From an uncultured Ruminococcus sp. (lineage in GTDB: Bacteria; Bacillota; Clostridia; Oscillospirales; CAG-272), in NCBI GenBank assembly GCA_902795355.1, contig CADBKZ010000020.1:55528-119527 (forward strand): 64,000 nt of DNA, read 5' to 3'. The position numbers and the translations under genes were made by a program. The notes under the pieces were generated by a model. It ran no database searches. It was not told the origin of the DNA and saw only the letters and a list, made by a program, of their open reading frames with translations. Positions 34,880 through 55,187 of this stretch are shown piece after piece. Every line of letters begins with the position of its first letter. Position 1 is the first letter of the stretch.

Positions 34880-35165
34880 GGAAATCTCCTGCCGAAATCT
34901 TTTCTGTTGCTCTTACTTGACAATCCGGCGGGGACCGCGAAGCGAGAGCGAGCGGTGGAAGGAGTTATGAAAGAGTAACTCCCTCCGTCAGGCTCCTCCG
35001 TCGCCCGCCACCTCCCCCAAGGAGGAGGTAAAAAGACAAACCGCCGAAAAGACAAAAGGGTATCATTTTTTCCAATTGGCAGTAGCTGAAAACCTCCCTC
35101 CCCGAGGGAGGGGGACCGCGAAGCGAGAGCGAGCGGTGGAAGGAGTTCCTCAAAAAAATCGGGAA
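34880..35165. repeat. Palindromic cassette island 5, inside the pyr cluster
   Basis: The 554 bp between carB and pyrK hold no gene. After an unremarkable stretch (34711-34900), cassettes with inner hairpin GACCGCGAAGCGAGAGCGAGCGGT and tail GGAAGGAGTT appear at about 34930-34970 and 35110-35150, with a reversed ACCTCC cassette between. Confidence 0.8.
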
Positions 35166-36844: not shown

Positions 36845-37215
36845 CCGTCAGAAACTCCTACCGGCAGGTTCGCAAGCTCACCTGCCACCTCGTTATCGGC
36901 TTGCCGATTATGAGCTCTCGCGAAGCGAATGAGAGAGTAAAAAACAGCGGTTGCCGCAAAAGCCCTCTCCGTCACGCTAACGCGTGCCAGCTCCCCCCGA
37001 GGGGGAGCCTTAAAGAAACCAATCGTTGGAAACTCCTTCCGTCTTGTCGCTCCGCTCCAAGCCACCTCCCCCAAAGGTGGAGGTAAAAGTAGTTGGCAAG
37101 CGGAAAGAATAACCGATGTTTATTCCTTCCAATGGGAACTAACTTGAAACCTCCCTCTTGAGGGAGGGGGACCATGAAGCGGAGCGAATGGTGGAAGGAG
37201 TTTTACTTCCCGTTT
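36845..37215. repeat. Palindromic cassette island 6, inside the pyr cluster
   Basis: The 500 bp between pyrD and pyrF contain no gene. Seen are a cassette with inner CTCGCGAAGCGAA (about 36905-36935), one with inner CACGCTAACGCGTG (about 36965-37010) that duplicates a unit of island 1 including its linker AAAGAAACCAATCGTTGGAA, and two ACCTCC cassettes (37065-37085 and 37150-37205). Confidence 0.8.
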
Positions 37216-40031: not shown

Positions 40032-40522
40032 AAAGCGCGTATTTTGCCGGCGGGTGCTTTTGGTGCGTTACGCCCGTGTTCGCGCGGCTCGGCGGCGTTG
40101 GGAGCGTTACGAGCGGGTATTGCGGCGGCAGGGAAGCGTCGCCCGCCTACGAGGATGTCAAACGCCAGCGCACCGGCCACCGCGAAACGGTCCGCGTGGA
40201 TTATGATGAAACGCTGGTGGATTACGCGCGGCTGTTGGACGTGTTTTTCGCGAACGTGGACCCGTTTGACGGCGGCGGACAGTTTATCGATCGGGGGCAT
40301 TCCTACACGCTTGCCGTCTATTTTCAAACCGCAGAAGAGGAAGCGGCCGCGCGCGCCAAGCGCGCGGCGGTGGAACGCGCGGCGGGAAAGCCCGCGGCCG
40401 TGAGCATAGAGCCGCTCGGGCCGTTCTGGACCGCCGAGGAATACCACCAGAATTTCTATTTGAAACAGCCCGAAGCGTTTGCCGAAGAGCTTCGCAAATC
40501 GGGGCGAAAGCAGCCCGAATAA
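40028..40522 (+). CDS. msrA: Peptide methionine sulfoxide reductase MsrA
   Basis: A 164-residue MsrA reducing methionine-S-sulfoxide in proteins. The catalytic motif GGCFWC is at residues 8-13, with GYCGG at about 31-35 and the substrate-site EYHQNFY near the C-terminus. It overlaps pyrI by ATGA, so it is translated with the pyrimidine genes although it has no known role there. A terminator follows. Attachment to a pyr operon is uncommon. Confidence 0.95.
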   Translation: MKSAYFAGGCFWCVTPVFARLGGVGSVTSGYCGGREASPAYEDVKRQRTGHRETVRVDYDETLVDYARLLDVFFANVDPFDGGGQFIDRGHSYTLAVYFQTAEEEAAARAKRAAVERAAGKPAAVSIEPLGPFWTAEEYHQNFYLKQPEAFAEELRKSGRKQPE

Positions 40523-40605
40523 AGGCGGGTTTCCGCGCTCGGTTTGCTTTGCCGCCGTCGGCTCGGGTCGCGGGTTTGGGCTGCAAGCTCGGGCCGCGCG
40601 CCCAT

Positions 40606-40645
40606 AAACCGCGGGTTCCCTTTGGGGAGCCGGCGGTTTTGTTTT
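40606..40645 (+). terminator. Terminator of the pyr-msrA operon
   Basis: A stem of 14 pairs with one mismatch (40606-40620 with 40625-40639, loop TTTG) followed by TTTTGTTTTT, about 85 bases after the msrA stop. Confidence 0.7.
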
Positions 40646-40669
40646 TGTCGGGGAAAGGCGATGGCCTTG

Positions 40670-41690
40670 GGGGAACTGCCCGTTGGAAAGCCTCATCCGT
40701 CAGACAACCGAGGCTTGACAGCCTCTCTGTCTGCCACCTTCCCCCAAGGGGAAGGCTCAAAGTTACAACACCGTAGAGAACAACCTGCGGTTGTATGGTG
40801 CTTGCTTCCACTGCAAATGGCACACAGAAAAAGAAAAAACCCTATTGCCGTAGGGCGGGGGCTTGCTCCCGCCGGAAGCGAAGTTTTTTGCAAATAAACG
40901 GCAGTGAATATCCGTAAATAGGTTATTTTCTTTTTTCGTTTGCTTTACGGCGGGAGCAAGCACCATACAACCGCAGGTTGTTCCCTGCGGCAATGGAATC
41001 GGAAACTTTCCCCAACGGGAGAAGGCTTATAATGTTTGCGAACAGCGGGAAGAAAGCAGAAACGGTTTATTCCCAACGGAAAGTTACTTGGAGCCTTCTC
41101 CCGTCGGAGAAGGTGGCCGCGGAGCGGCCGGATGAGGCTTCCGCTTGCTGGTTACTTCGCCTCGCCCTTTGGGAAAATCGGCAAGCCGATAACGAGGTCA
41201 GGCTGCAAGCAGCCGGAGAGGGTTAAACCTGTGGTTTTATTTCAACAACCCTCTCCGTCAGGCTCACAGGTTCGCCTGCCACCTCTCCCCGAGGGCGAGG
41301 CTTGAAGTAACTGCAAGCGTGCGCGCCACCTCCCCCAAGGAGGAGGTAAGGAAACAGGCATGCAAAAAGGTGAAAGACGTTTATTTTATCCAAATGGCAG
41401 TAACTTGAAATCTCCCCCGATGGTGGAGGTAAAAGTAGTTGGCAATCGGAAAGGGGAAACGATGTTTATTTCCATCGGGAACGAACTTGAAACCTCCTCC
41501 TTGGGGGAGGGGGACCGTGAGCGAGAGCGAACGGTGGAAGGAGTTTTTGGCGGTTGGTTTCTTCGAGGCTTCCCCTTGGGGAAATCGGCAAAGCAACGGG
41601 CAATCGGGAGCCTCATCCATAAGTCGCTTGCGACTTTGCCGCCATTCCCCCAAGGGGAAGGCTTGGAGCAACTTCCCGCTGAAACCTTTT
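40670..41690. repeat. Palindromic cassette island 7
   Basis: About 1 kb without a gene. Left to right: a reversed cassette with the long inner hairpin (40687-40755), an array of CCGCAGGTTGT / GGCGGGAGCAAGC units (about 40780-40990), a CCTTCTCC cassette with inner GCCGCGGAGCGGC (41092-41140), a GAGAGGTGG-type cassette (41255-41305), ACCTCC cassettes (41325-41350, 41500-41545) and a reversed one with inner AAGTCGCTTGCGACTT (41610-41665). 41691-41800 shows nothing further. Confidence 0.85.
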
Positions 41691-41802
41691 TCCGCGTTTT
41701 CTTTTTCGGGGCGTAACCGTTTCGGGAAAACGGCGAGAATATAAATAAAATTGGTAAACGGCGAATCTTTGCGCGGACGCGCGGCAAAAATCGGATGGAT
41801 GG

Positions 41803-41831
41803 TTGACAAGTCCGCGAAAACATGCTATAAT
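41803..41831 (+). promoter_or_regulatory. Consensus promoter of the surface-polymer locus
   Basis: Perfect TTGACA (41803-41808), 17-bp spacer, perfect TATAAT (41826-41831) preceded by TGC (extended -10). It is the only strong promoter seen for the genes 41912-48795. Confidence 0.9.
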
Positions 41832-41911
41832 AATCCTGTGGCAACTTTCCCGCGGCGCAAATTCCGCGCGCGGAACCGAGCCAAATCGCCCACAGCCAAA
41901 CGGAGAAACCA

Positions 41912-43645
41912 ATGAATCTGACTGAACGCAAAAAACGCATATTTCCCGCGCTTCTGGCGGCTCTCGCGCTCCCGTTGGTCGTTTGCGTGGAAGCGCCGTT
42001 CGAAATTTTCGGCAGCAACCTCGGGGAGTTTCTCTTCTCGCTCTCGGATTTTCTGCCGTTCTGCCTGCTGTTCGCCGTCGGCGGCGCGGCCGGAATCTTC
42101 GCCGTCCTGTTCTTCCTGCCGCAAAAGATTTACCGCTTTGTCTATCCCGCGGTAGTTGCGGCGGCGTTCCTCTTCTTTTTGCAGGGGACCTACCTCAACC
42201 TCGGACTGACCTCGCTCCCCGGGGACCATTTGGAAGGCGTTCCCGTTTCGGCGGCGGCAAAGGTCGTCAACACGGTCGTCTGGGTCGCGGGGCTTTCGCT
42301 CGCGGTCGGCTCGGCGTTTTTCAAAAAGCGCGACGTCGTTTCCATCGTTTGTCTGCTGCTCTCGCTGGTTGTGGTGGGAACGCAGGTGATCAACACCGTG
42401 TTTGTGGCGGTTTCCAACGGGGAGATCACAAAATCCAAATACGATCGGCTGGAGCAATCCACGTCCGAGAGCATTCCGCGCGTGATGTCCAAAAAGAACC
42501 TGACCACCGTTTCGGCGGACGGGAACGTGATCGTTTTCATTGTGGACCGATTCGACGAAAACTATGCCGAGCGCGCTTTTCGGGAGTCGCCCGAGGTCTA
42601 CGGCGAGCTTACGGGCTTTACGTGGTTTCAGGACCACATTTCGCTCTTTGCCCATACCTACCCTGCCGTTACATGGATGCTGACCAACGCGCCCTATTCC
42701 TGCGATACCGACCGCGTAACCTACCAGAACGCGGCGTTCGCGGGGGAGACCCCCATTGGAAAGCTCTCGGAAGCGGGCTACACCGTTAACGTTTATTCGC
42801 AGGCGGTTTACGCGTACAGCGACGAATCGAACCTGCCGCCGTATCTTGCCAACGTGGTTCCGGTGGAACATTTTGCAACGCTGACCGCGGCCGACCGCGC
42901 AACGCTTGCGGGAACCATGATCCGCATGGCGTTCTACCGCTGTTTGCCGTTCCTGCTCAAAGGGGCGGCGGGGAACATCGGCTCCGAGGCAACCGCAAAA
43001 ATCGTTCTGGAAGCGCAGTCCGAAAACGCGTACACGCTCGATATGAAGGACGTTTACGAAACGCTGACCGCCGAGGATTTTACGCTCGCCGAGGGGAAAA
43101 CGTACAGCTACATTCACATTACGGGGTGCCACGGCGTTACCTACAACGAGAATTTTGAAACCCCGACCGAAAGCGAGGCAAAGAACATTGCCACCTCGGT
43201 CCGCGCGAGCTTCCGGATTATCGACCGCTATTTGCGGGAAATGAAGCGGCTCGGAGTTTACGAGGACGCCACCATTCTGATTACGGGCGACCACGGCGCG
43301 GCCCTCAACGACACCCGCGAGGTGCGCGAACCCCGCCTGACCGCGCTGTTCGCAAAGCCCTCGGGCAGCGGGAGCGAGCCGTTGCGGATCTCCGCGGCGC
43401 AGGTCTCGCACGAGGACCTTTGGGCAACCGTGTTCCGCTCCGAGGGGCTGGACGGCGCGGGGGACTACGGAACTTCGGTGTTCGAGGTGGCCGAGGGAAC
43501 CGACCGCACGCGTTACCACCGCTGGCAGACCTACATGCGCCGGAGCCTTGACGAATATGTTTACGAGGTGACGGGCGCGGGCAAAACGTTTTCCAATTGG
43601 CGCGAGGCAAGCCGCGAACATTGGGATAAGTTTTTAATGGATTAA
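41912..43645 (+). CDS. Membrane-anchored alkaline phosphatase/sulfatase-superfamily transferase
   Basis: A 577-residue protein with five N-terminal hydrophobic helices (residues about 10-170) and a large extracellular domain. That domain has the metal and nucleophile layout of the sulfatase/LTA-synthase superfamily: VIVFIVDRFDENY (first Asp), TYPAVTWMLTNAPYS with the candidate Thr nucleophile, YIHITGCHG, and ITGDHGAAL at the C-terminal metal site. The plan resembles LTA synthase and phosphoethanolamine or phosphoglycerol transferases more than soluble sulfatases. It probably moves a phospho-alcohol group outside the cell; the substrate is inferred only from neighbours. First gene of the locus; CGGAGA precedes the ATG. 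Confidence 0.75.
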   Translation: MNLTERKKRIFPALLAALALPLVVCVEAPFEIFGSNLGEFLFSLSDFLPFCLLFAVGGAAGIFAVLFFLPQKIYRFVYPAVVAAAFLFFLQGTYLNLGLTSLPGDHLEGVPVSAAAKVVNTVVWVAGLSLAVGSAFFKKRDVVSIVCLLLSLVVVGTQVINTVFVAVSNGEITKSKYDRLEQSTSESIPRVMSKKNLTTVSADGNVIVFIVDRFDENYAERAFRESPEVYGELTGFTWFQDHISLFAHTYPAVTWMLTNAPYSCDTDRVTYQNAAFAGETPIGKLSEAGYTVNVYSQAVYAYSDESNLPPYLANVVPVEHFATLTAADRATLAGTMIRMAFYRCLPFLLKGAAGNIGSEATAKIVLEAQSENAYTLDMKDVYETLTAEDFTLAEGKTYSYIHITGCHGVTYNENFETPTESEAKNIATSVRASFRIIDRYLREMKRLGVYEDATILITGDHGAALNDTREVREPRLTALFAKPSGSGSEPLRISAAQVSHEDLWATVFRSEGLDGAGDYGTSVFEVAEGTDRTRYHRWQTYMRRSLDEYVYEVTGAGKTFSNWREASREHWDKFLMD

Positions 43646-43729
43646 GACGTCGCCGCGAATTGCGCGGCCCGCGCCTTAACGCAATACGGGATCGCCCGAA
43701 TCCATGAAAGACAGAGGACATTTCGCAAT

Positions 43730-45835
43730 ATGAACAAAGCGCTATCCTATATTTGCGTCCCCTTCGGGTATCTGATGCGGGGGTGCTGGCGTCTGGCGGG
43801 GAACTACGGCCTCGCGATCCTGCTGTTCACCTTGGTCACAAAAATCGTGCTGCTTCCCGTTTCGGTGTGGATCCAGAAAAACTCCATCCGCATGGTGCAG
43901 ATCCAACCCGACGTCAATTTTCTCAAAGCCGCGCACTACGGCGACGCGGACGCGATTGCCGAGGGGCAGGCCAAGCTCTTCAAGGAGAAGAAATACCGCC
44001 CCGCGCTCTCGCTGATCCCGCTCGTGGTCCAAATCGTGCTGCTGATGGGCGTGGTGGAGATCATCTACCACCCGCTCGGCTACCTGTTCGGCGTTCCCGA
44101 GGCGGTCTCCCGCGCGCTGGCGGATTTCATCGGGGCGGACCCGTCGTCCTCTTCGTATCAGCTGCGGATCGTGGAAGCGATCCGCGAGGGGACCGTTACC
44201 GCGTCGTCGCCCGTTGCGGGGGTCAGCGCGGAAACGCTTTCCTCGGTGGTGGAGCGGGTTGGCGCGTTCCGGCTGGATTTTCTCGGCTTCCGCCTTTCCG
44301 AGATCCCAACCGAGGTTTGGGGAATTTACACGCTCGTTCCCGTTCTCGCGGCGCTCTCCTCGTTCGTCCTCTGCCATACGCAGAACCTTGCCAACGTGAT
44401 CCAGCATGAGCAGGGCGCGTGGAGCAAATACGGGCTTATGGCGCTGTCGGTCGGTCTTTCGCTCTATCTCGGCTGTTTCGTTCCCTCGGGCATCGCGCTC
44501 TATTGGGTTGCGAGCAACCTGCTTTCGGTTGCGCAGATGTACCTGCTTAACGCGGCGATCAACCCGAAAAAATATGTGGATTACGAGGCCTTGGAGCGCA
44601 GCCGCCGCGAGCTGGCGGCCATTGAGGCGTTGGAAGCTCCCCCCAAAAAGGACGCGGACTACCGCCGCAACAAACAGCGCGAGCGGCAGGACTACAAAAA
44701 GTTCTTCAAGGTGGTCAACAAGCATGTGGTGTTCTATTCCGAAAAGAGCGGGTTCTATAAGTATTTCGAGGACATCATTGCCGAGCTGCTGCGCCGCTCC
44801 AACCTGACCGTCCACTACATTACCAACGACCCCGACGACATCATCTTTTCGGTGGCCGAGCGCGAGCCGCGCATCCGCCCCTACTACATCGGCCTGAAAA
44901 AGCTGATTCCGCTGATGATGCTGGCGGAAACCGACATCATGGTGATGACCACGCCCGATTTCGACAAATTCTATCTCAAACGGTCGCGCATCAAAAAGGA
45001 CGTGGAATATATTTACATTCCCCACGACATGATGAGCGTTCACATGGGCTTCCGCGAGGGCGCGCTCGACGCGTTCAACACGATTTTCTGCACGGGGGAG
45101 CATGTGGTCAGGGAGGTGCGCGCCACCGAGCGGGTCTACGGTCTCCCCGAAAAAACCTTGGTCCCGTTCGGCTACCCGCTGGCCGACCGGTTGGTTGCGG
45201 CTGGAAAAGCGGCAAGGGAAGCGCACGGAGCGGCTCTGCGCCGGAACGCGCGGCGGCAGATTCTGATTGCGCCTTCGTGGCAAGAGGACAACCTGCTGGA
45301 TTCCTGCGTCGATTCCCTGATCGAACAGCTCTGGGGCGAGGATTACCGCCTGATCGTCCGCCCGCACCCCGAGTATGTCAAGCGGTACGGCGCGCGCATG
45401 CAGGCGTTGGTGGAGAAATACCGCGACCGGATCGGCGACGGGCTGACCTTTGAGCTGGACTTCTCCGCGAACGATTCGATTGCGACGTCCGACCTGATTA
45501 TTACCGATTGGTCGGGCATCGCGCCGGAATTTTGCTTTGCAACGGGGCGTCCCGCGCTGTTTATCAATACCAAGATCAAATGTCTTAACCCCAATTGGAA
45601 AAACCTCGGGCTGACCCCTGTGGAAATCTCCCTGCGCGAGGAGCTCGGCCGCTCGCTCGACCCCTGCGAGCTGGGGCGGACGGCCGAGGTCGTCCGCGAA
45701 CTGATTGAGGAGACCGACCGTTACCGCGAGCGCATCGACCAACGGTTCGCGTCTTTCATCTTCAACCACGGGCATGCGGGCGAAGCCGGCGCGAAGTACA
45801 TTCTGCAATCGCTGGTGGAAAAGCGCAAGCCGTAA
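43730..45835 (+). CDS. Fusion: YidC/Oxa1-type insertase plus CDP-glycerol glycerophosphotransferase domain
   Basis: A 701-residue protein in two parts. Residues 1-285 are a YidC-like membrane domain: GLAILLFTLVTKIVLLPVSV as the first core helix, with Lys38 where B. subtilis SpoIIIJ has the groove Arg; IQPDVNFLKAAHYG in the coiled loop; then helices to ALYWVASNLLSVAQMYLLNA. A charged linker (about 285-325) leads to residues 330-695, a TagF-type glycerophosphotransferase: YIPHDMMSVHMG, LIAPSWQEDNLL, IVRPHPEY and ITDWSGIAPEF. TagF enzymes polymerise or attach glycerol-phosphate from CDP-glycerol at the membrane. AGAGGAC precedes the ATG. The frame is continuous and no internal start fits better, so the fusion looks genuine. 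Confidence 0.85.
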   Translation: MNKALSYICVPFGYLMRGCWRLAGNYGLAILLFTLVTKIVLLPVSVWIQKNSIRMVQIQPDVNFLKAAHYGDADAIAEGQAKLFKEKKYRPALSLIPLVVQIVLLMGVVEIIYHPLGYLFGVPEAVSRALADFIGADPSSSSYQLRIVEAIREGTVTASSPVAGVSAETLSSVVERVGAFRLDFLGFRLSEIPTEVWGIYTLVPVLAALSSFVLCHTQNLANVIQHEQGAWSKYGLMALSVGLSLYLGCFVPSGIALYWVASNLLSVAQMYLLNAAINPKKYVDYEALERSRRELAAIEALEAPPKKDADYRRNKQRERQDYKKFFKVVNKHVVFYSEKSGFYKYFEDIIAELLRRSNLTVHYITNDPDDIIFSVAEREPRIRPYYIGLKKLIPLMMLAETDIMVMTTPDFDKFYLKRSRIKKDVEYIYIPHDMMSVHMGFREGALDAFNTIFCTGEHVVREVRATERVYGLPEKTLVPFGYPLADRLVAAGKAAREAHGAALRRNARRQILIAPSWQEDNLLDSCVDSLIEQLWGEDYRLIVRPHPEYVKRYGARMQALVEKYRDRIGDGLTFELDFSANDSIATSDLIITDWSGIAPEFCFATGRPALFINTKIKCLNPNWKNLGLTPVEISLREELGRSLDPCELGRTAEVVRELIEETDRYRERIDQRFASFIFNHGHAGEAGAKYILQSLVEKRKP

Positions 45836-45900
45836 CCGCGCGAGGAGCCTTTTGAGTGGCTGTCCTGTCTTTTGTATTTTTTTCGGAAAGGAGAACGAAC

Positions 45901-46212
45901 ATGAACGTAACCGAGTTGTTCCGCGCCGCGGCGGCAATGCCGAGGGGGCTGTATATCGACCCGTCGGCCGTAACCGTTGCGGTATCTTCCATCGGCGGCG
46001 TTGCCATTGCCGTCGGCACCGCCGTTGTAATCTGGTGGCGGCGCGCCAAAAAGAAAGCGGCCAAGGTGCTGCACATCGACGAGAACGCGAACAAGGAAGT
46101 GGAGCAGGACCTTGTTGTGAAAAGCGACGAGGAGTTGAGGGCGGAGACGTCCGCGGAGCCGGATTCCGAAACGCCCGCTCAACCGATCGGACCCGAACCC
46201 CCCGAAGAATAA
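45901..46212 (+). CDS. Small single-span membrane protein of unknown function
   Basis: A 103-residue protein, start chosen at 45901 with AAAGGAG nine bases upstream. One transmembrane helix (VSSIGGVAIAVGTAVVIWW, residues about 28-46) is followed by a basic RRAKKKAAK stop-transfer segment and an acidic, Pro/Glu-rich tail. This predicts N-terminus outside, tail inside. No family is recognised. Placed between the insertase fusion and the cytidylyltransferase, it might be a partner or scaffold of one of them. Confidence 0.7.
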   Translation: MNVTELFRAAAAMPRGLYIDPSAVTVAVSSIGGVAIAVGTAVVIWWRRAKKKAAKVLHIDENANKEVEQDLVVKSDEELRAETSAEPDSETPAQPIGPEPPEE

Positions 46213-46385
46213 CCCGAACCCGACACCGTGTTCAAATTGCGCAACTGTGCGCTCCCGTATGAACGGAGCGAATGGTTGTGCAGTTTGTGATTCTCAAAAC
46301 CGTCCCCCGTGTTCAAAAATCGCCGTTCGGTTTCCGGAAATGAACGGCGCGGCCCCCACCGAAAAGAAGAAAGGAAAAAATCAGA

Positions 46386-47291
46386 ATGGAATCGGAACCA
46401 ACCTTGACCCGCAAGCAGTTCGACCTGCTGGAAGCGCTCGCAACCGCCGCCGGACCGTTGACCCAGCGGCAGCTCGAAGAACAAACGGGATATTCGCTCG
46501 GAACCATTAACAAGCTGGCAAAGGAGATGGCCGCCGAGGGGCTTCTTGCCGACGGCAGAATTACCCCCGCGGGCTTGGCGGCGTTGGAACCCTACCGCGC
46601 CAAACGCGCCGTGTTCATTGCGGCGGGCTTCGGCACCCGCTTGGTTCCCGTAACGCTCAACACCCCCAAGCCGTTGGTGCGCGTTCACGGAAAACGCATG
46701 ATCGACGGGCTGATCGACGCCTGCCTTGCCGCGGGGATCAACGAGATTTACGTGGTGCGCGGCTACCTTGCCGAGCAGTTCGACCAACTGCTTTATAAGT
46801 ATCCCATGATCAAATTTTTGGAAAACCCGTCCTATAACGAGGCCAACAACATTTCGTCGGCGGTCTGCGCGCGGTATCTGATGCAGAACGCGTATGTGTT
46901 CGAGGCCGACCTGCTGATCTCCAACCCCGCCATCATCAAAAAATACCATTATACGTCCGATGTGCTGGGCATCTGGAAAGAACGCACCGACGATTGGTGC
47001 CTGACCGTGGACCGCGAGGGATTTTTGGACGAGGAGAAGGTGGGCGGCCTGAACTGCTACCAGATGGTGGGCATTTACTATTGGAACGCGGCCGACGGCG
47101 CAAAACTCGCCGACCACCTGCAAGAGGCCTACCTTGCCCCTGGGGGAAAGGAGCGGTATTGGGAAACGGTGCCCAATCAGGTTTACCGCGGGCAATATCG
47201 GGTGCGCGTGCGCCCCTGCGAGGAAACGGACATTGTGGAGATCGACACATTCCGCGAATTGAAGGCGATTGACAAAACATATGATGTTTGA
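46386..47291 (+). CDS. Winged-helix/LicC-type cytidylyltransferase fusion
   Basis: A 301-residue protein. Residues 1-70 are a MarR-like winged helix (LTRKQFDLLEALATAAGPLT, GYSLGTINKLAKEMAAEGLL). Residues 73-300 are a nucleotidyltransferase of the LicC group: FIAAGFGTRLVPVTLNTPKP for nucleotide binding, NPSYNEANNISS (typical of phosphocholine cytidylyltransferase) and VFEADLLIS with the metal Asp. LicC makes CDP-choline from CTP and phosphocholine. The HTH may tie activity or expression to DNA or a ligand. No choline kinase or LicD transferase gene is near, so the substrate could be another phospho-alcohol. A short hairpin at 46321-46349 lies upstream. Confidence 0.82.
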   Translation: MESEPTLTRKQFDLLEALATAAGPLTQRQLEEQTGYSLGTINKLAKEMAAEGLLADGRITPAGLAALEPYRAKRAVFIAAGFGTRLVPVTLNTPKPLVRVHGKRMIDGLIDACLAAGINEIYVVRGYLAEQFDQLLYKYPMIKFLENPSYNEANNISSAVCARYLMQNAYVFEADLLISNPAIIKKYHYTSDVLGIWKERTDDWCLTVDREGFLDEEKVGGLNCYQMVGIYYWNAADGAKLADHLQEAYLAPGGKERYWETVPNQVYRGQYRVRVRPCEETDIVEIDTFRELKAIDKTYDV

Positions 47292-47313
47292 ACCGCGAAA
47301 GGAGAAACAACAC

Positions 47314-48795
47314 ATGCAAAACGAGCAAAATCGGCAACCCGCGCTCCGCAAGCAGTTAAGCCCGCTTCATGTATGGGCGATCGCGTTCGGGTGCATCATC
47401 GGGTGGGGATCCTTTATCAACCCCGGGAAAAAGTTTTTGCCCAATTCGGGCGTTGCGGGAACCGCCATTGCCATGGCCCTCGGCGCGCTGGTTATGGTGG
47501 TGATCGCGTTCAGCTACGCGTATATGGTCCCCAAGTACCCCAAAGCGGGCGGGGAATTTACCTTTACCAAAGCCTGTTTCGGCAAGTCCGCCGCCTATCT
47601 TTGCGGGTGGTTTCTCGTTGCCGCGTACCTCACCAACGTTCCCATGAACTCCACCGCCATCGGGCTGATTGTGGACGGGTTGGACGGATCGGCCGATCTT
47701 CTGAAATGGGGATTTCATTATACCATCGCGGGCTTCGAGGTCTACCTCGGCGAAATGCTGCTCGCCATGGGGATTCTGGTTCTGTTCGGAATCCTGAACA
47801 TTCTCGGGGTAAAAAAAGCGGGCTTCATTCAGGCGGCGTTGGCGTCGCTGCTCGCGGTTTGCGCGTTCACGCTCTGCGTTTCCGCGCTGGTTTCCGCAAA
47901 GGCCTCGGGAATCCACATGGAGCCGATCTGGGGGTTCGATAAAAAGGCGGCCGCGGCGGCGGGAGCCACCGCGGCAAACATCGGCGAATTTGCGCATCGG
48001 GGAACGCAGGGCGTTCTTTCCGCCGTTCTCGCAACCTTTGCCATCGCCCCTTGGGCGTTCGTCGGGTTCGATACCATTCCGCAGGCGGCCGAGGAGTTCC
48101 GGTTTTCCTACCGGAAGGTGATGGGCATTCTGGTGGTTGCCATTGCGTTCGGGTGCTTTGTTTATATCTCCAACAACACGGTTGCCGCCGCCGCGCTTGA
48201 AAATTGGCCCGACCGCGTGCTGGCGGGGGAATGGGTGCTTCTCGTTGCGGCCGAGGAACTGCTCGGCGCGTTCGGAAAGGTTCTGGTGGGCGTTGGCGTT
48301 TCCTGCGCGGTGCTTTCGGGAATCATGGGCTTTTACCTCGCGTCCAGCCGGCTGATGTACTCCATGAGCCGCGACGGGTACCTGCCCGCGTGGTTCGGGA
48401 AGATTGACGAAAAGCACGGCACGCCGAAAAACGCGATGATCTTCTGCATCGTTATCTCCCTCTCGGGGCCGATTCTGGGGCGCGAGGCGCTCGGCTGGTT
48501 TGTGGATATGTCGGCCATCGGGGCGTCCATCGGCTATTTCTTTACCTGTGTTGCAACGCTTGTTACCATGAAGCGGGCGGGGGACGGCACGCGGCATCTG
48601 GCCGTGCTGGCAACGGTTGGCGCGGTGTTCTCGGTCCTGTTCATGGTGTTGCAGTTGATTCCCATTCCGGGGCTTTCGGGCGTGCATTTCAGCAAAGGGT
48701 CCTACCTGATGCTGGCGGTTTGGGTCGCGCTTGGCGCGGGATTCTACCTGAAACAGAGAAAACATTTTTCGGGGGATTTCTCCGAGGGAACGTAA
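47314..48795 (+). CDS. APC-superfamily permease
   Basis: A 493-residue protein with 12 or so helices. The first helix WAIAFGCIIGWGSFINPG has the Gly-rich unwound stretch of APC amino-acid transporters, and KYPKAGGEFTF is the usual loop before helix 3. Start 47314 has AAAGGAG nine bases upstream. It follows the cytidylyltransferase gene by 22 bases, so it may import the amino alcohol that enzyme activates (choline or ethanolamine are possibilities); an amino acid is equally possible from sequence. Last gene before a strong bidirectional terminator. Confidence 0.85.
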   Translation: MQNEQNRQPALRKQLSPLHVWAIAFGCIIGWGSFINPGKKFLPNSGVAGTAIAMALGALVMVVIAFSYAYMVPKYPKAGGEFTFTKACFGKSAAYLCGWFLVAAYLTNVPMNSTAIGLIVDGLDGSADLLKWGFHYTIAGFEVYLGEMLLAMGILVLFGILNILGVKKAGFIQAALASLLAVCAFTLCVSALVSAKASGIHMEPIWGFDKKAAAAAGATAANIGEFAHRGTQGVLSAVLATFAIAPWAFVGFDTIPQAAEEFRFSYRKVMGILVVAIAFGCFVYISNNTVAAAALENWPDRVLAGEWVLLVAAEELLGAFGKVLVGVGVSCAVLSGIMGFYLASSRLMYSMSRDGYLPAWFGKIDEKHGTPKNAMIFCIVISLSGPILGREALGWFVDMSAIGASIGYFFTCVATLVTMKRAGDGTRHLAVLATVGAVFSVLFMVLQLIPIPGLSGVHFSKGSYLMLAVWVALGAGFYLKQRKHFSGDFSEGT

Positions 48796-48844
48796 CGGTT
48801 CTTTGTCGGTCCGCCCGAATCCGCGTTTCTTCCCCGCAAAATCA

Positions 48845-48890
48845 ATTGCGAAGGGGGCTTTTTCCGGCTGGGAAAAGCCCCCTTCGCAAT
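48845..48890. terminator. Bidirectional terminator
   Basis: A 20-bp stem with one bulged T (48845-48865 with 48871-48890) containing T5 and A4 runs, between the convergent permease and the minus-strand membrane protein. Confidence 0.85.
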
Positions 48891-48908
48891 GATGGTTTCG
48901 TTTTTTAT

Positions 48909-49442
48909 TTACTTAATGCCGAAACGGCCTTTCAGGCGGAGCAGGTAGAAGGTGATCAATCGGGTCATGGCAATGTCGTAGAGGACGAAACAGAACACCA
49001 CGGCAACATAGAACAGCGCAAGCATCCAAACGCGGCTCTCGAACGCGGCGTTCGGCGCGAGCAAAAAGCGGAACGCGAGGATCGCCGCCGCGCCCGCAAG
49101 ATGGAGCCACGCCAGCTTGACGACCCACGCCGCAACGCGCGGCAGGCGTTCGATCCGCTCCTTAATCATGGGGTAGAACCCGAGGAGCAGATAGAAGAGC
49201 GCGGGCGATTTTTGCGGAAGCAGGAGAAAGGCCAGCCCCGACGTAACCGCCCAGATCATCCACGGATAGCCGCCGCGCATTTCGATTACCGCGTAAACGC
49301 AGAAAAACGACGCGAGCGCGGCAACCGAAAGGTCGAGCGTATCCAGAAGGGAACCGAGCGCCAGAATCGCCACGCCGAGCGCGGCGAGCAGCGCGCTCAC
49401 GGTCAGGCACTTGGTCCTGCGGCGGATCTGATCCCGTTTCAT
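48909..49442 (-). CDS. Conserved integral membrane protein of unknown function
   Basis: A 177-residue protein with five or six hydrophobic segments and a basic N-terminus (MKRDQIRRRTKCL). FYPMIKERIERLP sits in a cytosolic loop. The general look recalls small ECF-type substrate-binding membrane proteins, but I do not recognise the family. It starts one base after the stop of the J-domain gene and is the third gene of a minus-strand trio with it and DUF5685. Confidence 0.75.
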   Translation of the reverse strand: MKRDQIRRRTKCLTVSALLAALGVAILALGSLLDTLDLSVAALASFFCVYAVIEMRGGYPWMIWAVTSGLAFLLLPQKSPALFYLLLGFYPMIKERIERLPRVAAWVVKLAWLHLAGAAAILAFRFLLAPNAAFESRVWMLALFYVAVVFCFVLYDIAMTRLITFYLLRLKGRFGIK

Positions 49443-49443
49443 G

Positions 49444-50064
49444 TCAGCAGCAGGGAATCAGGTCTCCGCCCATCATCTCGCAGCAGCAATCGGCGCAGAG
49501 CAGGTTGCCGCAGCAGGAGCAGGCGGTGTCGAAGTTGCCGGATTGCGAGGTGCGGTAGCCCGTTGGGTTGTTGGCGGCCTGCTGCTCCACCTGATCGCGG
49601 GCGTTGCGGTATTCCTGATTGTAGGGGTCCATTTCGCAGGCGCGGTCAAAGAGCTTTTGCGCGTCCACATAATAGCCGCGCTTGAAAAGGACGCACCCCA
49701 TTAAAAAGTTCCATTCGGCGTTTCTTTCCTCGTCGGGGAAGGCGCGCAAACGGCGGTCGGCCTCGCGGATCTGGTCGTTGTTAATCAGGTTGCGGATCTC
49801 CGCGTACCGCGCGTTGGCGTATTCGCGGTCGGCGCGGGGGTCTCCCCCCGCCGAGGTCCGCTTTGCGCGTTCGGCGCGCTCTTTCTGAATTTCTTCGTAG
49901 GCGGCGTTGATCTCCTTCATCTTCTCGCTCGCGAGGTCGGCAAGGTCGCTGTCGCGGTAGCGGTCGGGGTGATATTTGCGCGCCAGCTCGCGGTAGGCCT
50001 GCTTCACCTCTTCGTCGGTGGCGTTGCGGTCAATGCCGAGAACCGTGTAGGGATTAGGATTCAT
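49444..50064 (-). CDS. J-domain protein with Cys-rich C-terminus
   Basis: A 206-residue protein, start at 50064 with AAAGGAG nine bases upstream. Residues 1-65 are a J domain with YHPDRY, including the HPD needed to stimulate Hsp70. A helical region (about 70-160) resembles tetratricopeptide helices ([20 protein letters not shown]). The end is a Cys cluster, [19 protein letters not shown] and a final CC, likely a metal site. There is no zinc-finger domain of classical DnaJ. Overlaps the DUF5685 gene by 11 bases. It probably recruits DnaK to a specific client, perhaps its neighbour. Confidence 0.85.
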
Positions 50065-50999: not shown

Positions 51000-51084
51000 G
51001 TACAATTTGTGAATGAAGCGAAAAAGTTACAATTTTTTGATTTTTGATTTGCGCCCCGCGGGGAGAAGAGCGCGCAATCGGTTG

Positions 51085-52110
51085 CTATGAAACTCCTTCC
51101 GTCGCGCTCCTGCGCCGCTTGACGTCTCGTTGTCTGCTTGCCGATTTTTCCGAGGGCGAGACGAAGAGACAGGCAAGCGGCGGCCTCATCCGCCTCGCGA
51201 TGCTCGGCACCTCCCCCCATAGGAAAGGCTGCAAGCAGCCGCGCTTTTGCGTTGCAAAATCGCAAGGCTCGCGGTGTTCGCGGACAGCGGGAAGAAAATC
51301 AAAAAACTATATTCCGCAGGGAATAAAATGTGGTTGAGTGGTACTTGTACACTCCGCAAACGGCACACAAAAACAAAGAAAGATAAAGCAAATCCTGTTA
51401 TTATATTACTGTAGGGCGGGGGCTTGCTCCCGCCGGAAGCGAAAAGTTTTTGCAATTAAACGGTAGTGAATATCCGCATATTTGTTATTTCCTTTTCCCG
51501 TTTGTTCTCGGCGGGAGCAAGCCCCCGCCCTACGGAAAACGATACCGTTTTTATATTTGCAACTTATAATTTGTGCGTGGCGGGAGCGGAAGCCAACGCG
51601 GCCTTTGGCCGCCCGACCTACAGTGTTGTAACTTTAAGCCTTCCCCCAAGGGGAAGGCTCGCGGTGTTCGCGGACAGCGGGAAGAAAATCAAAAAACTAT
51701 ATTCCGCAGGGAATAAAATGTGGTTGAGTGGCTCTTGCTGTCGCTATGGATGTTCCAAAAGAGGATGAAATGTAGGGCGGGGGCTTGCTCCCGCCGGAAG
51801 CGAAGTTTTTTGCAAATAAACGGTAATGAATATCCGCATAGTTGTTATTATCTTTTCCCGTTTGTTTTTGCGGCGGGAGCAAGCCCCCGCCCTACGGAAA
51901 TAATGGAAATAAAGGCTATGTAATGTTCTTTGGGGAGCAAGCACCATACAACCGCAGGTTGTTCCCTACAGTAAATAGGGATGTTTCATCTTCCTTTTGA
52001 TGTCGTCTGCGGCGGGAGCGGAAGCTAACGCGGCCTTTGGCCGCCCGCCCTACGGTGTTGTAATTTTGAGCCTTCCCCCATAGGAAAGCTTTTGCGTTGC
52101 AAAATCGCAA
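51085..52110. repeat. Palindromic cassette island 8
   Basis: About 1 kb without a gene. It is dominated by GTAGGGCGGGGGCTTGCTCCCGCCGG hairpin units in both orientations (about 51412-51440, 51508-51535, 51772-51800, 51870-51895), with TTTTGCAA(A/T)(A/T)AAACGG linkers and a GGCGGGAGCGGAAGC(C/T)AACGCGGCC unit twice (51580-51625 and 52008-52050). AAGGCT cassettes lie at about 51210-51270, 51635-51660 and 52070-52115. The composition differs from islands 1-3, where the CCTTCCCC class prevails. Confidence 0.85.
51654..51731 (+). repeat. Exact 78-bp direct repeat of 51264-51341
   Basis: The 78 bases starting AAGGCTCGCGGTG are identical to those at 51264-51341, 390 bp away. They include the GTTCGCGGACAGCGGGAAG linker and an ATTCCGCAGGGAAT palindrome. 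It is a recent duplication inside island 8. Confidence 0.9.
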
Positions 52111-52471: not shown

Positions 52472-52523
52472 ATAATTGTATATTCCCGCTCGGAGCGGGC
52501 GGGAGAAACGGAGGACGACGGGA

Positions 52524-55187
52524 TTGCATATTCTGACGGTCGGTTTGGCGGCGGATACGGGCCGCGCATGGATCTACCTCGCAATCGCCGCGCTGGCATG
52601 CGTGTTGGCAGCCGAGGCGGTTTGCATCGTTCTGATCGCCATGCGGATGCGCGCGGCGCGAAAGATCAGAAAAGCGGAAGAAGAACGGGAGAGGGGGACA
52701 AGCCTCTCCGGCTTTGGCGCGCTCGCTTTGGCGGGCGGCGTGGTGTGGGCGAGCGAGGTGTGGCTGGTCGCGCTCGGCGCGCTCGCGCTCGCGGGAGCGG
52801 CGGCCGTCGGCGTGCTGCTGATCGTCTGCCGCGTAAAGGGGTACCTGTTCGTCTCCGTGGATGAAATGAAGAGAGACGAGGCCGAAAGCCAAGAAAAACC
52901 AGAACCGGTCGCCGCGGAAGAGGCGGACGAAATTGCCGAGCCCGATGAAATTGCCGATGCGGACGGGCAGGACGACGCCGACCGCGCCGTCGCCGCGTTT
53001 GCGGAGACGGCGGAACAGGACGGGACGCCGGAAGCCGGAGAACCCGAGAACGCGGAACCCGAGGACGAGCCGGAGCAGGCCGCGCCGGTTCCGACAACCC
53101 GCGTGGTGGAAACCACCGTAACCGAAACGGTGCGGGAAACGGTGCGCGAGCGGCAGAAAGAGGCCGCGCCGGCCGAGGAACCGACCCCCGCCGAAGAGGA
53201 GAACGAGGACGCGCTTGATAACGAGCCGGACGACAGCCTTGACAGCATTGACGACGACAGCGACGACGGCGACGAGGACAACGAACTCAACGATCCCGAC
53301 CACTTCACCGGAAACGAGCGCATCATCGGCTTCGACGACGCGTCGGGGTGCTACATTGTGGCGCGCTACCGCAAGTCGTTCGAGGCGAAACTGATCCAAT
53401 CACAATCGCACATCAAGAAATATTACAGCGAGATCAAAAACGCGCTGTTGGCGTATAAAGGCACCAAGTCGCGCATGAGCTGGACGGCGGACAGCTTCCA
53501 TAACGGCCGCGCGCAGATCGCGAAGATCAACGTCAAAACCCGCATCCTCGAACTTTACCTCGCGCTCGACCCCGCAACGCTGGATGGGTCGGTTTATCGC
53601 GGGCAGGACGTGGGCGCGCTCAAAAAGTACGAGGAAACGCCGTTCCGCTATAAGATCCGCACGCCGCGCAAATTCCGCTGGGCGCTCGAATTGGTCGCCC
53701 GCGTTTGCGAGGAACACGGGTTGGCGCCCATCGACATCGAGCATGTGGACTATGAAAAACAGTACCCGTTCGACACCATCGACCATCTGGTGGAGCGCAA
53801 GCTGATCAAAGTGACCACCCGATTGGAAAAACCGGCGACCACGTTCGAGTTCGATAACGACCGGATGCCGGAGCCGGAACCCGCCGACGACGAGAACGCC
53901 GAAGCGATTCCCGCCGCGGCAGCCTCTTGGGAATACGACGGCGGAGAAGCCCCCGCCGCGGCCGAGCAATTGGCCGCCGAGGTGGAAACGCCCGCGCCCG
54001 CCGAGGCGACGGATGCCGCCGTGGAAACCGAGACCGTTCGCGAAACGGTGCGCATAACGCAGATCCGCTATACCGAGCGGTACGGAGAGAACGGAGAAAT
54101 CATCGGAACCACCGACCGCGTAATCGCCGACGCGCCCGCCGAAGCCGTTGTGGAAGAATCGGCGGAAGAGGAAGGGATCGAAGCGGCGGAACCTGAAGCC
54201 GTTCCCGCCATGAACTCCGAGGGGGCCGACCCGTTGACCGCCGCGTTCGGCGAGGCGCACCCCGAAAACCTTTGGAGCGAGGAGACCAGCGAGAGCGAGG
54301 CCGAGCGCATGAACGAGGGGACGGACGAAACCGACGTTTCCGAATTTGCGGAAGAACCCGAGGAAGAGCCTGTGGAAACCTTCCCCGCGGACGACGAATA
54401 CACCGAGGAATCGCTTTCGGTGGGCGAAGAGGGCGACGAAAACGCGCTGGCGGCGATCTTCTCGGACGGAAACGAGATCCCCGTGGAACTCCACGACCCG
54501 AACGACTATGAACCCGATTTCGGGGAAGCGGACGGGGCGAGCGAGGACGAAGAATCGCTGACTGACCGCGAACCCGCCTACACCGACCACCTCTATGAAG
54601 AGGTGCAGATCGGCGATCTTCCCGCGGAAGAACCCGAAACACCCGAAAACCCGCAAGAGGAACCCGAACCCGAGCCGTTCCGCCCGCAGTACGGCGAACA
54701 GCTTTCCTACGAAACGCAACGGCGGTACGAGGCCGCCGAGGAACCGAGCCAGCCGCGCGGCGGGCAGTACGAACCGAGCCAAACCTACGGCCCGCAGGCT
54801 TCCTACGGCTCGCGGGATCCCTACGGTTCGCAAACGGCATACACGCCGCGCGAACCCGAACGCCCGACCTACGCGCCCGCGCCGGAGCCGCGGTATGAAA
54901 CGCCCGCCGCGCCGCCGCGCGAGGAACCCAAGAAGAAACAGGTTGATCCCGAGCTGGCCGTAATCGACGTCAGCCTGCTCGACATCAATTTCGCCGACGG
55001 CGACCATGTGAACCTCGCCGTTCTGCAAAGGAGAGGCCTTGCGCTCTCCACGGCCACGAAACTCAAAGTCCGCGCGCGCGGGGCGGAGAGCATGCGCCAT
55101 GCGTTGGTGATCCTTGCCAACCAATTCACCTACGACGCCATCCGCGTAATCAGCGAGGCGGGCGGCGAAGCGCAATTCATCCGGTAA
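52524..55187 (+). CDS. Membrane protein with acidic repeats, a conserved clostridial domain and an L15-like C-terminal domain
   Basis: Read from TTG at 52524 (887 residues) because GGAGG is nine bases upstream; the open frame continues 16 codons further. Two or three helices occupy residues 15-108. Acidic low-complexity sequence follows, with two Val/Glu/Thr/Arg motifs (VETTVTETVRETVRE near 190, ETVRETVRITQIRY near 500). Residues 262-435 form a globular domain seen widely in gut Clostridia (YRKSFEAKLIQSQSHIKKYY, KSRMSWTADSF). The last 80 residues (VNLAVLQRRGLALSTATKLK.., ending AGGEAQFIR) resemble the core of ribosomal protein uL15. Function unknown; it is not a ribosomal protein. It is 14 bases upstream of the surface-protein gene. 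Confidence 0.75.
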   Translation: MHILTVGLAADTGRAWIYLAIAALACVLAAEAVCIVLIAMRMRAARKIRKAEEERERGTSLSGFGALALAGGVVWASEVWLVALGALALAGAAAVGVLLIVCRVKGYLFVSVDEMKRDEAESQEKPEPVAAEEADEIAEPDEIADADGQDDADRAVAAFAETAEQDGTPEAGEPENAEPEDEPEQAAPVPTTRVVETTVTETVRETVRERQKEAAPAEEPTPAEEENEDALDNEPDDSLDSIDDDSDDGDEDNELNDPDHFTGNERIIGFDDASGCYIVARYRKSFEAKLIQSQSHIKKYYSEIKNALLAYKGTKSRMSWTADSFHNGRAQIAKINVKTRILELYLALDPATLDGSVYRGQDVGALKKYEETPFRYKIRTPRKFRWALELVARVCEEHGLAPIDIEHVDYEKQYPFDTIDHLVERKLIKVTTRLEKPATTFEFDNDRMPEPEPADDENAEAIPAAAASWEYDGGEAPAAAEQLAAEVETPAPAEATDAAVETETVRETVRITQIRYTERYGENGEIIGTTDRVIADAPAEAVVEESAEEEGIEAAEPEAVPAMNSEGADPLTAAFGEAHPENLWSEETSESEAERMNEGTDETDVSEFAEEPEEEPVETFPADDEYTEESLSVGEEGDENALAAIFSDGNEIPVELHDPNDYEPDFGEADGASEDEESLTDREPAYTDHLYEEVQIGDLPAEEPETPENPQEEPEPEPFRPQYGEQLSYETQRRYEAAEEPSQPRGGQYEPSQTYGPQASYGSRDPYGSQTAYTPREPERPTYAPAPEPRYETPAAPPREEPKKKQVDPELAVIDVSLLDINFADGDHVNLAVLQRRGLALSTATKLKVRARGAESMRHALVILANQFTYDAIRVISEAGGEAQFIR

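What the first reader, a model, noticed from the sequence alone, without database searches (positions are those of the whole stretch)
43730..45835. YidC/Oxa1 insertase fused to a CDP-glycerol glycerophosphotransferase
One continuous 701-residue frame joins a YidC-like membrane domain (residues 1-285) to a TagF-type transferase domain (330-695). In characterised bacteria the first inserts membrane proteins and the second builds teichoic acid, as separate proteins. The insertase part has a Lys (38) at the position of the functional groove Arg in SpoIIIJ. The fusion may use the YidC fold as a membrane anchor or lipid-carrier channel for glycerophosphate transfer rather than for protein insertion. 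I do not know of any experimental description.
Basis: partly seen in the sequence, partly recalled or inferred. Interest (0 to 1): 0.8.

Follow-up and report, generated by a model that had tools for sequence, protein, structure and literature searches.

The report
Phosphonate surface transferase with YidC half
Clostridia from animal guts carry one protein that joins a YidC-type membrane domain to a TagF-type transferase, and its gene neighbours suggest that it likely belongs to a machine that would put phosphonate or similar head groups on the cell surface rather than one that makes ordinary teichoic acid.

Summary
The 701-aa frame at 43730-45835 is a real, conserved fusion of a YidC-fold and a TagF/TarL-type domain, not an artefact: the 120 relatives listed all carry both Pfam domains. 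The genome has a second, housekeeping-type YidC. The fusion is part of a four-module set: a short 'YIDP' membrane helix, the TagF-like transferase, YidC, and an LtaS-like extracytoplasmic enzyme. Related genomes divide the modules differently, with YidC fused to the LtaS-like enzyme instead. Neighbours point away from CDP-glycerol: a LicC/PntC-like cytidylyltransferase here, 2-aminoethylphosphonate-type importers and phosphonate synthesis genes beside relatives, and no TagD found. I infer a head-group transferase whose YidC half passes the charged lipid outwards. Against: this genome has no detectable PEP mutase or PhnS2-type importer, 15 of 50 fusion genomes lack the cytidylyltransferase, and some loci suggest phosphocholine or other groups. 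The two arrangements were found in only 5 and 10 of 382 class genomes. Donor, acceptor and scramblase role are untested.

The parts
41803..41831 (+). promoter-like site, TTGACA-17-TATAAT, with TG before the second hexamer, upstream of the operon
   Evidence: 12 of 12 consensus matches; but 2 sites were found in the region against 2.5 expected from shuffles, so its position is the only support
41912..43645 (+). LtaS/EptA-like membrane phosphotransferase (sulfatase superfamily), 577 aa: several predicted N-terminal membrane segments and an extracytoplasmic domain with D212, T249 (predicted nucleophile), H402, H407, D460, H461
   Evidence: PF00884, 32.4 bits; membrane segments by hydropathy; nearest solved structure LtaS 2w5q, 6.6e-8; the six residues in 21 of 21 aligned; a relative in 71 of 84 loci, the window's own locus L092 among them
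43730..45835 (+). YidC-TagF fusion, 701 aa
43730..44584 (+). YidC-fold domain (residues 1-285); K38 at 43841-43843 in the position of the groove Arg
44087..44314 (+). insertion of about 75 residues (120-195) between the second and third membrane helices, predicted to face outwards
   Evidence: AlphaFold2 secondary structure; topology inferred from YidC
44711..45829 (+). TagF/TarL-type transferase domain (residues 328-700); H432 at 45023-45025, H546 in RPHP at 45365-45367, D593-W-S in ITDWSG
   Evidence: invariant in 22 of 22 aligned
45901..46212 (+). small membrane protein with YIDP motif, one membrane segment and basic tail (ATG at 45901; the tool's ORF starts at a GTG at 45856)
   Evidence: a YxDP small ORF directly downstream of the fusion in 63 of 77 tested loci
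46386..47291 (+). winged-helix + LicC/PntC-like cytidylyltransferase, 301 aa
   Evidence: MarR_2 and NTP_transferase; LicC 1jyk 2.6e-26 over residues 69-296, PntC 6pd1 1.7e-11 over 73-182
47269..48795 (+). APC-type permease, possible importer of the head-group precursor (substrate unknown)
   Evidence: PF13520, 140.7 bits; a relative in 4 of 84 loci: L032, L052, L065 and the window's own L092

Best explanation
The fused gene at 43730-45835 most likely encodes the membrane-bound head-group transferase of a phosphonate-type (2-aminoethylphosphonate or a near relative) surface-decoration pathway, in which the TagF-like half would take a cytidylyl-activated head group and the YidC-like half would pass the charged lipid across the membrane to the LtaS-like enzyme encoded next door. 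Shown: the fusion, both folds, the conserved neighbours, and the different division of the same four modules in related genomes. Inferred: import or biosynthesis supplies a phosphonate (or, in some loci, a phosphocholine-like compound); the wHTH-cytidylyltransferase makes CMP-AEP or the like; the TagF-like domain, held on the cytosolic face by the YidC domain and the YIDP protein, loads the group on a membrane lipid; the YidC groove scrambles that lipid to the outer leaflet; and the Thr-dependent LtaS/EptA-like ectoenzyme moves the group on to a surface acceptor. The acceptor is unknown.
For: (1) Module swap: here YidC+TagF fused beside a separate LtaS-like enzyme and a YIDP membrane protein; in relatives YIDP+TagF beside YidC+LtaS-like (16 loci with the second fusion examined, a TagF-like gene in 14 of 16). 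The parts are homologous by profile: TagF parts 99.9%, E 4.7e-37; LtaS-like parts 99.6%, E 2.8e-24. (2) Donor: LicC/PntC-like cytidylyltransferase in the window, with a homologue at E <= 1e-40 in 35 of 50 fusion genomes (the first 50 of 80 loci; three of the 35 only at 39-44% identity) against 4 of 139 same-order genomes in which no module was seen. One representative each of the three importer genes found in fusion loci scores best against PhnS2, PhnT2 and PhnU2. L137 holds YidC-LtaS-like, TagF-like, PntC-like, PhnW-AepZ, PEP mutase and phosphonopyruvate decarboxylase on one strand, the last three over NCBIfam cut-offs. Fusion loci L075 and L091 lie beside PEP mutase. The position that is Glu104 in the AEP enzyme Tde-PntC and Asp105 in LicC is Glu in 26 of 26 aligned (L013 and L112 are the same gene). 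No TagD and no choline kinase was found in the own genome. (3) Relay: purified E. coli YidC scrambles lipids in liposomes (PMC10491306, a preprint, passages). EptA and MCR take their group from phosphatidylethanolamine, and LtaS/EptA/MCR have a Thr nucleophile (PMC7576196, passages). That Thr is invariant here, 21 of 21 and 18 of 18 aligned.
Against: The own genome has no detectable PEP mutase and no PhnS2-type importer, so the phosphonate link rests on relatives; its permease is of unknown substrate. The importer proteins score below the curated cut-offs of those models. At the second specificity position 22 of 26 have Asp as in LicC and 4, the window among them, Glu. 15 of 50 fusion genomes lack the cytidylyltransferase at that threshold. 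PEP mutase lies near the fusion in only 2 of 80 loci. L029 and L030 have instead a transaminase, with a TagD-like domain in L030 (119.7 bits under a cut-off of 165.4). L105 has a choline/ethanolamine-kinase domain and L138 a kinase-type gene, which suggests phosphocholine. In G391 no donor gene was found with the profiles tried. Seven of 16 loci of the second arrangement show no donor gene in the fetched stretch. No step is shown biochemically; scrambling was shown for E. coli YidC, not for these domains.
Confidence: 0.5

Rival explanations
1. Same donors, but the YidC domain is only a membrane anchor and docking site: the TagF-like half decorates a lipid-linked glycan on the cytosolic side, a separate flippase exports it, and the LtaS-like enzyme does an independent job.
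For: The relatives with a stand-alone TagF-like enzyme carry a YIDP membrane segment instead of YidC, so the transferase itself may need only an anchor. A Polysacc_synt (flippase-type) gene is next in the L137 locus (30.6 bits, cut-off 28.2).
Against: In the second arrangement the YidC domain is fused to the LtaS-like enzyme, whose homologue here has several membrane segments of its own and should need no anchor. Much of the YidC sequence is conserved: 60% mean column identity, 37 invariant positions in 28 rows.
Confidence: 0.27
2. Ordinary teichoic-acid chemistry: the fusion adds or polymerises glycerol phosphate from CDP-glycerol, and the neighbour is a lipoteichoic acid synthase-like enzyme.
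For: PF04464 membership and TagF/TarL as the best fold matches; LtaS as nearest solved relative of the neighbour; a TagD-like domain beside the fusion in L030.
Against: No TagD found in the own genome; the HGTP-type motif is replaced; the profile match of the transferase part to canonical PF04464 proteins (E 7.6e-10) is far weaker than to the stand-alone relatives, some of which lie beside phosphonate genes (E 4.7e-37); LicC/PntC-like neighbour.
Confidence: 0.1
3. The YidC domain is a dedicated insertase that helps to insert and assemble its partner membrane proteins (LtaS-like enzyme, YIDP protein).
For: YidC fold; the partners are membrane proteins encoded beside it.
Against: In the second arrangement the YidC domain is part of the same chain as its supposed client. 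The groove Arg is Lys in 26 of 28, and Asn, Gln, Ser or Thr in 18 of 18 of the second arrangement. A housekeeping-type YidC is present.
Confidence: 0.1
4. Sequencing or assembly artefact, or a chance fusion without function.
For: None found; the PF04464 match is modest (50.6 bits).
Against: Same architecture and length in the 120 relatives listed and in loci from many separate MAGs.
Confidence: 0.01

Closest known systems
YidC/Oxa1/SpoIIIJ membrane insertases (PF02096, TIGR03592)
   Same: sequence family over cut-off, YidC-type fold, basic residue at the groove position
   Different: fused to a transferase; groove Arg replaced by Lys; about 75-residue insertion predicted outside; not beside rnpA/yidD/jag; a second YidC holds that place
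TagF/TarL teichoic acid polymerases (PF04464)
   Same: PF04464 over cut-off, closest fold match, RPHP and ITDxS motifs, a conserved His that aligns, through the stand-alone relatives, with the HGTP His
   Different: HGTP motif replaced; no TagD found in the genome; cytidylyltransferase neighbour is LicC/PntC-like; joined to a YidC domain
Phosphonyl tailoring (Pnt) pathway with PntC (Rice et al. 2019, PMC6697681) and the parallel Lic phosphocholine pathway
   Same: cytidylyl activation of a small amino-phosphonate or phosphate for the cell surface; PntC/LicC-like enzyme; Ppm, Ppd and AEPT beside some relatives
   Different: the sections I read mention LicD-like phosphotransferases or glycosyltransferases near pntC and show no transferase at work; here the neighbours are a TagF-like transferase, a YidC domain and an LtaS-like enzyme; no PEP mutase found in the window's genome
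LtaS, EptA and MCR Thr-nucleophile lipid head-group transferases
   Same: membrane segments plus extracytoplasmic domain; invariant Thr, Asp and Asp-His
   Different: sits in a cytidylyl-activation operon and, in the second arrangement, is fused to a YidC domain

Membership tests
YidC/Oxa1 insertases | PF02096 / TIGR03592 over curated cut-off | tested here: met
   93.3 vs 35 bits; 89.0 vs 84.3
YidC/Oxa1 insertases | YidC fold | tested here: met
YidC/Oxa1 insertases | Arg in the hydrophilic groove (Arg366, E. coli numbering) | tested here: not met
   Lys in 26 of 28, Arg in 2. The charge is kept, so this lowers 'it is a standard insertase', not 'it has the fold'. I do not file it as an insertase
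YidC/Oxa1 insertases | inserts membrane proteins | not testable with these tools
   needs complementation
TagF/TarL CDP-alditol polymerases | PF04464 over cut-off and TagF-type fold | tested here: met
TagF/TarL CDP-alditol polymerases | HGTP-type catalytic motif | tested here: not met
   PHDMMS in the fusion, its His invariant in 22 of 22. The 13 canonical segments from 8 loci were picked by the motif itself, so they show what it looks like, not how common it is. That H432 stands in its place is inferred through the stand-alone relatives
TagF/TarL CDP-alditol polymerases | CDP-glycerol supply (TagD, TIGR01518) in the same genome | tested here: not met
   no match in G000, 97.4% complete
Phosphonyl tailoring (Pnt) pathway | PntC/LicC-like cytidylyltransferase beside the system | tested here: met
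   46386-47291
Phosphonyl tailoring (Pnt) pathway | PEP mutase in the same genome | tested here: not met
   none in G000; present in G469 and G514 and near relatives L137, L143, L145, L075, L091. So for the window I claim 'works like', by salvage of an imported compound, not membership
Phosphonyl tailoring (Pnt) pathway | residues that go with AEP rather than phosphocholine (Glu104 and Glu196 of Tde-PntC) | tested here: inconclusive
   first position Glu in 26 of 26; second Glu in 4 of 26 (the window included), Asp in 22. The printed Tde segment ended before Glu196, so that position was placed by LicC Asp192 alone
Phosphonyl tailoring (Pnt) pathway | CMP-phosphonate made and used | not testable with these tools
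   needs enzyme assay
LtaS/EptA Thr-nucleophile transferases (the neighbour 41912-43645) | invariant Thr nucleophile and metal-binding Asp/His | tested here: met
   D212, T249, H402, H407, D460, H461 in 21 of 21 aligned; LtaS as nearest solved relative, matched over the C-terminal motif region only

The most novel reading that the evidence does not exclude
The YidC fold has been turned from a protein insertase into a lipid conduit: together with a TagF-like enzyme inside and an LtaS-like enzyme outside it forms a self-contained relay that carries phosphonate or phosphocholine-type head groups from CMP/CDP donors in the cytosol to the cell surface, which would supply the missing last steps of phosphonate tailoring in many gut bacteria.
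Probability: 0.35. Interest if true: 0.9.

Novelty: new variant of a known kind. Interest (0 to 1): 0.74.

Why it matters
Rice et al. 2019 (PMC6697681; abstract and sections 6, 7, 8 and 10 read) write that most bacterial phosphonate biosynthetic capacity serves the cell surface and that the tailoring steps after C-P bond formation remain enigmatic; they supply the cytidylyltransferase PntC, and the sections I read show no transferase at work. This module offers a concrete transferase, a membrane-crossing part and an ectoenzyme for the steps after PntC, in a gene set small enough to purify and test together. It also gives a natural test of whether lipid scrambling by YidC-family proteins, seen in liposomes and simulations (PMC10491306, passages), is used by a cell. 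The five of 120 listed relatives that carry a name are called 'membrane protein insertase YidC', so the transferase is hidden by the name.

Tried and rejected
Artefact: rejected. Only YidC of the genome: rejected. CDP-glycerol/teichoic reading: kept as a rival at low weight. Transcription and RNA: a perfect promoter-like site precedes the operon, but such sites are as frequent in shuffles; no Rfam family reached its threshold in 40500-49500.

One origin or two for the YidC domains of the two arrangements: not settled. Each forms its own clade, but the tree that holds them together is not rejected (p-AU 0.146; long branches; two long housekeeping rows were dropped, a third was kept).

Association: Fisher P 1.2e-5 for 5 of 8 module genomes against 4 of 139 others in the order sample, and 7.8e-22 for 35 of 50 fusion genomes against the same 4 of 139. 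The genomes are related, so these describe and are not probabilities. The 8 are G000, G469, G391, G514 (fusion; G514 also has the second arrangement) and G426, G478, G453, G488 (TagF-like hit; in G488 the contig ends just after that gene, so its partner was not seen). The order-wide search for the second arrangement did not complete, so some of the 139 may carry it.

Donor genes in the fetched stretch of the second arrangement: 9 of 16 loci (L105, L106, L107, L137, L138, L142, L143, L144, L145; in L138 and L145 some kilobases away on the other strand), none seen in L109, L135, L136, L139, L140, L141, L146. Near the fusion, among the 43 of 80 loci with at least 3 kb upstream and 7 kb downstream: LtaS-like 36, cytidylyltransferase 21, PhnS2-like 14, PhnU2-like 14, transaminase 1, PEP mutase 1. 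Kinase of the L105 type: 0 of 80. In one search the 84 loci include the window's own L092, and L093 is the genome of L013.

Literature: searches listed no paper on the fusion or on a TagF-like phosphonate transferase; hits were judged by listing. PMC6697681: abstract and sections 6, 7, 8, 10. PMC10491306, PMC7576196, PMC7618853: passages only.

Full report

A PARALOGUE, NOT THE GENOME'S INSERTASE. The same assembly (2.16 Mb, 97.4% complete) has a second PF02096 protein, which follows genes that I read as rnpA and yidD and precedes one that I read as jag. By position it is the normal YidC. Curiously it has Glu where E. coli has Arg366.

THE OPERON. A sulfatase-superfamily membrane protein (41912-43645) ends 84 bases before the fusion. 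A small one-helix protein with the motif YIDP (ATG at 45901) follows, then a winged-helix/cytidylyltransferase protein (46386-47291) and an APC permease (47269-48795). Relatives of the sulfatase-type gene are held in 71 of 84 loci (the window's own among them), of the small protein in 69 and of the cytidylyltransferase in 36; a YxDP small ORF follows the fusion directly in 63 of 77 loci tested. The sulfatase-type protein is closest to LtaS among solved structures, over the C-terminal motif region, and keeps Asp212, Thr249, His402, His407, Asp460 and His461 in 21 of 21 aligned. LtaS, EptA and MCR have a Thr nucleophile with such metal ligands, and EptA and MCR take phosphoethanolamine from phosphatidylethanolamine (PMC7576196, passages).

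THE SAME MODULES, CUT DIFFERENTLY. TagF-like hits in same-order genomes led to loci in which a stand-alone TagF-like protein that begins YIDPGTGSM or close to it (Y, I, D and P invariant in 15 of 15) lies next to a protein that is YidC followed by the sulfatase-type enzyme. This second fusion also has many relatives: 4,492 of 7,995 scored candidates at E <= 0.001; the 120 listed all carry PF02096 and 94 of them also PF00884. Of 16 such loci examined, 14 hold a TagF-like gene. Profile comparison joins the parts of both arrangements: TagF parts 99.9% (E 4.7e-37), sulfatase parts 99.6% (E 2.8e-24), YidC parts 88.7% (E 2.6e-6). So four modules (YIDP helix, TagF-like, YidC, LtaS-like) are divided as [LtaS-like] [YidC-TagF] [YIDP] in one set of genomes and [YIDP-TagF] [YidC-LtaS-like] in the other. 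In a class-wide sample the first was found in 5 of 382 genomes (E <= 1e-40) and the second in 10 of 382 (E <= 1e-30; 8 of the 10 in one genus); G202 has both. Whether the YidC domains share one origin is open (p-AU 0.146). Fusion of YidC to either the cytosolic or the extracytoplasmic enzyme is what one expects of a membrane part that serves both.

WHAT THE TRANSFERASE USES. In the own genome no other PF04464 protein and no TagD was found. The neighbouring cytidylyltransferase matches LicC over residues 69-296 (2.6e-26) and PntC over 73-182 (1.7e-11). PntC makes CMP-AEP and LicC CDP-choline (PMC6697681). The residue that is Glu104 in Tde-PntC and Asp105 in LicC is Glu in 26 of 26 of this family; at the second position (LicC Asp192) the window has Glu, as the paper gives for PntC, but 22 of 26 have Asp. 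In fusion loci the genes next to it often encode an importer (PhnS2-like gene in 22 of 80 loci); one representative of each of its three parts scores best against PhnS2, PhnT2 and PhnU2, the putative 2-aminoethylphosphonate transporter, below the models' cut-offs. In L137 the second arrangement is followed on the same strand by a PntC-like gene, 2-aminoethylphosphonate aminotransferase, PEP mutase and phosphonopyruvate decarboxylase, the last three over NCBIfam cut-offs. L143 and L145 hold PEP mutase and phosphonopyruvate decarboxylase; L143 and L144 hold a relative, below cut-off, of phosphonate-type iron alcohol dehydrogenase. Two fusion loci, L075 and L091, lie beside PEP mutase. L105 has a choline/ethanolamine-kinase domain and L138 a kinase-type gene, which suggests phosphocholine, and L030 a transaminase and a TagD-like domain. 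The common theme is a cytidylyl-activated small phosphonate or phosphate group; the group appears to vary.

STRENGTH OF THE LINK. The cytidylyltransferase family is found at E <= 1e-40 in 9 of 147 same-order genomes, 5 of them among the 8 in which either arrangement was seen, and in 35 of 50 fusion genomes. Fifteen of 50 lack it. For the own genome the donor is the weakest point: no PEP mutase, no PhnS2-type importer and no choline kinase was found, so the precursor would have to enter by the APC permease or another route.

MECHANISM. The TagF-like half is predicted to sit in the cytosol, since YidC ends inside and CDP/CMP donors are cytosolic (established topology, recalled). The LtaS-like domain would be outside. 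If the head group travels on a lipid it must cross between them, and among the shared modules only the YidC domain looks able to do this. Purified E. coli YidC scrambles lipids in liposomes (PMC10491306, a preprint, passages). The groove residue is Lys (26 of 28) in one arrangement and Asn, Gln, Ser or Thr (18 of 18) in the other, which fits a polar groove no longer bound to the insertase's Arg. This step is inference; an anchor-only role explains most of the data too.

WHAT IS NEW. Each family is known; the combination was not found in the papers I could search. PMC6697681 supplies PntC and mentions LicD-like phosphotransferases or glycosyltransferases in the neighbourhoods, but the sections I read show no transferase at work. 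I file the finding as a new variant of a known kind: cytidylyl-activated surface tailoring, by inference, carried out by a YidC-containing module.

Noticed in passing
L001 841-2610 (G000:C19): The housekeeping-type YidC of this genome has Glu at the position of E. coli Arg366, so neither YidC found in the genome keeps the Arg.
   Followed up: partly
window 40540-41780 and 51000-52100: Dispersed intergenic repeats: copies of 40-97 nt shared between the two stretches, some inverted, and others shared with 35003-35111 and 37066-37204.
   Followed up: no
window 52476-55187: 903-aa protein, acidic by eye, whose residues 838-899 match Ribosomal_L27A at 22.2 bits, just over the cut-off of 21.5.
   Followed up: no
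window 55202-59332: 1376-aa repetitive, probably surface-exposed protein with a C-terminal membrane segment (by eye; not scanned).
   Followed up: no
L030 8275-10673 (and L029): Beside the fusion: a PhnW-AepZ-like transaminase (below cut-off) and, in L030, a TagD-like domain fused to an oxidoreductase-like part; perhaps a different activated head group.
   Followed up: partly
L138 11370-18001: The YidC-LtaS-like fusion at this place in G113 lies near BCCT transporter, MTTB-type methyltransferase, LicC-like and kinase-type genes, which suggests choline or betaine chemistry.
   Followed up: partly
L142 3093-5009: LicC/PntC-like domain fused to a class I/II aminotransferase beside the second arrangement.
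   Followed up: no
L110 6390-10737 (G469:C8): PEP mutase fused to NTP-transferase and cytidylyltransferase-like domains, with iron alcohol dehydrogenase and a TPP-type decarboxylase, on another contig than the fusion of the same genome; possible hydroxyethylphosphonate pathway.
   Followed up: partly
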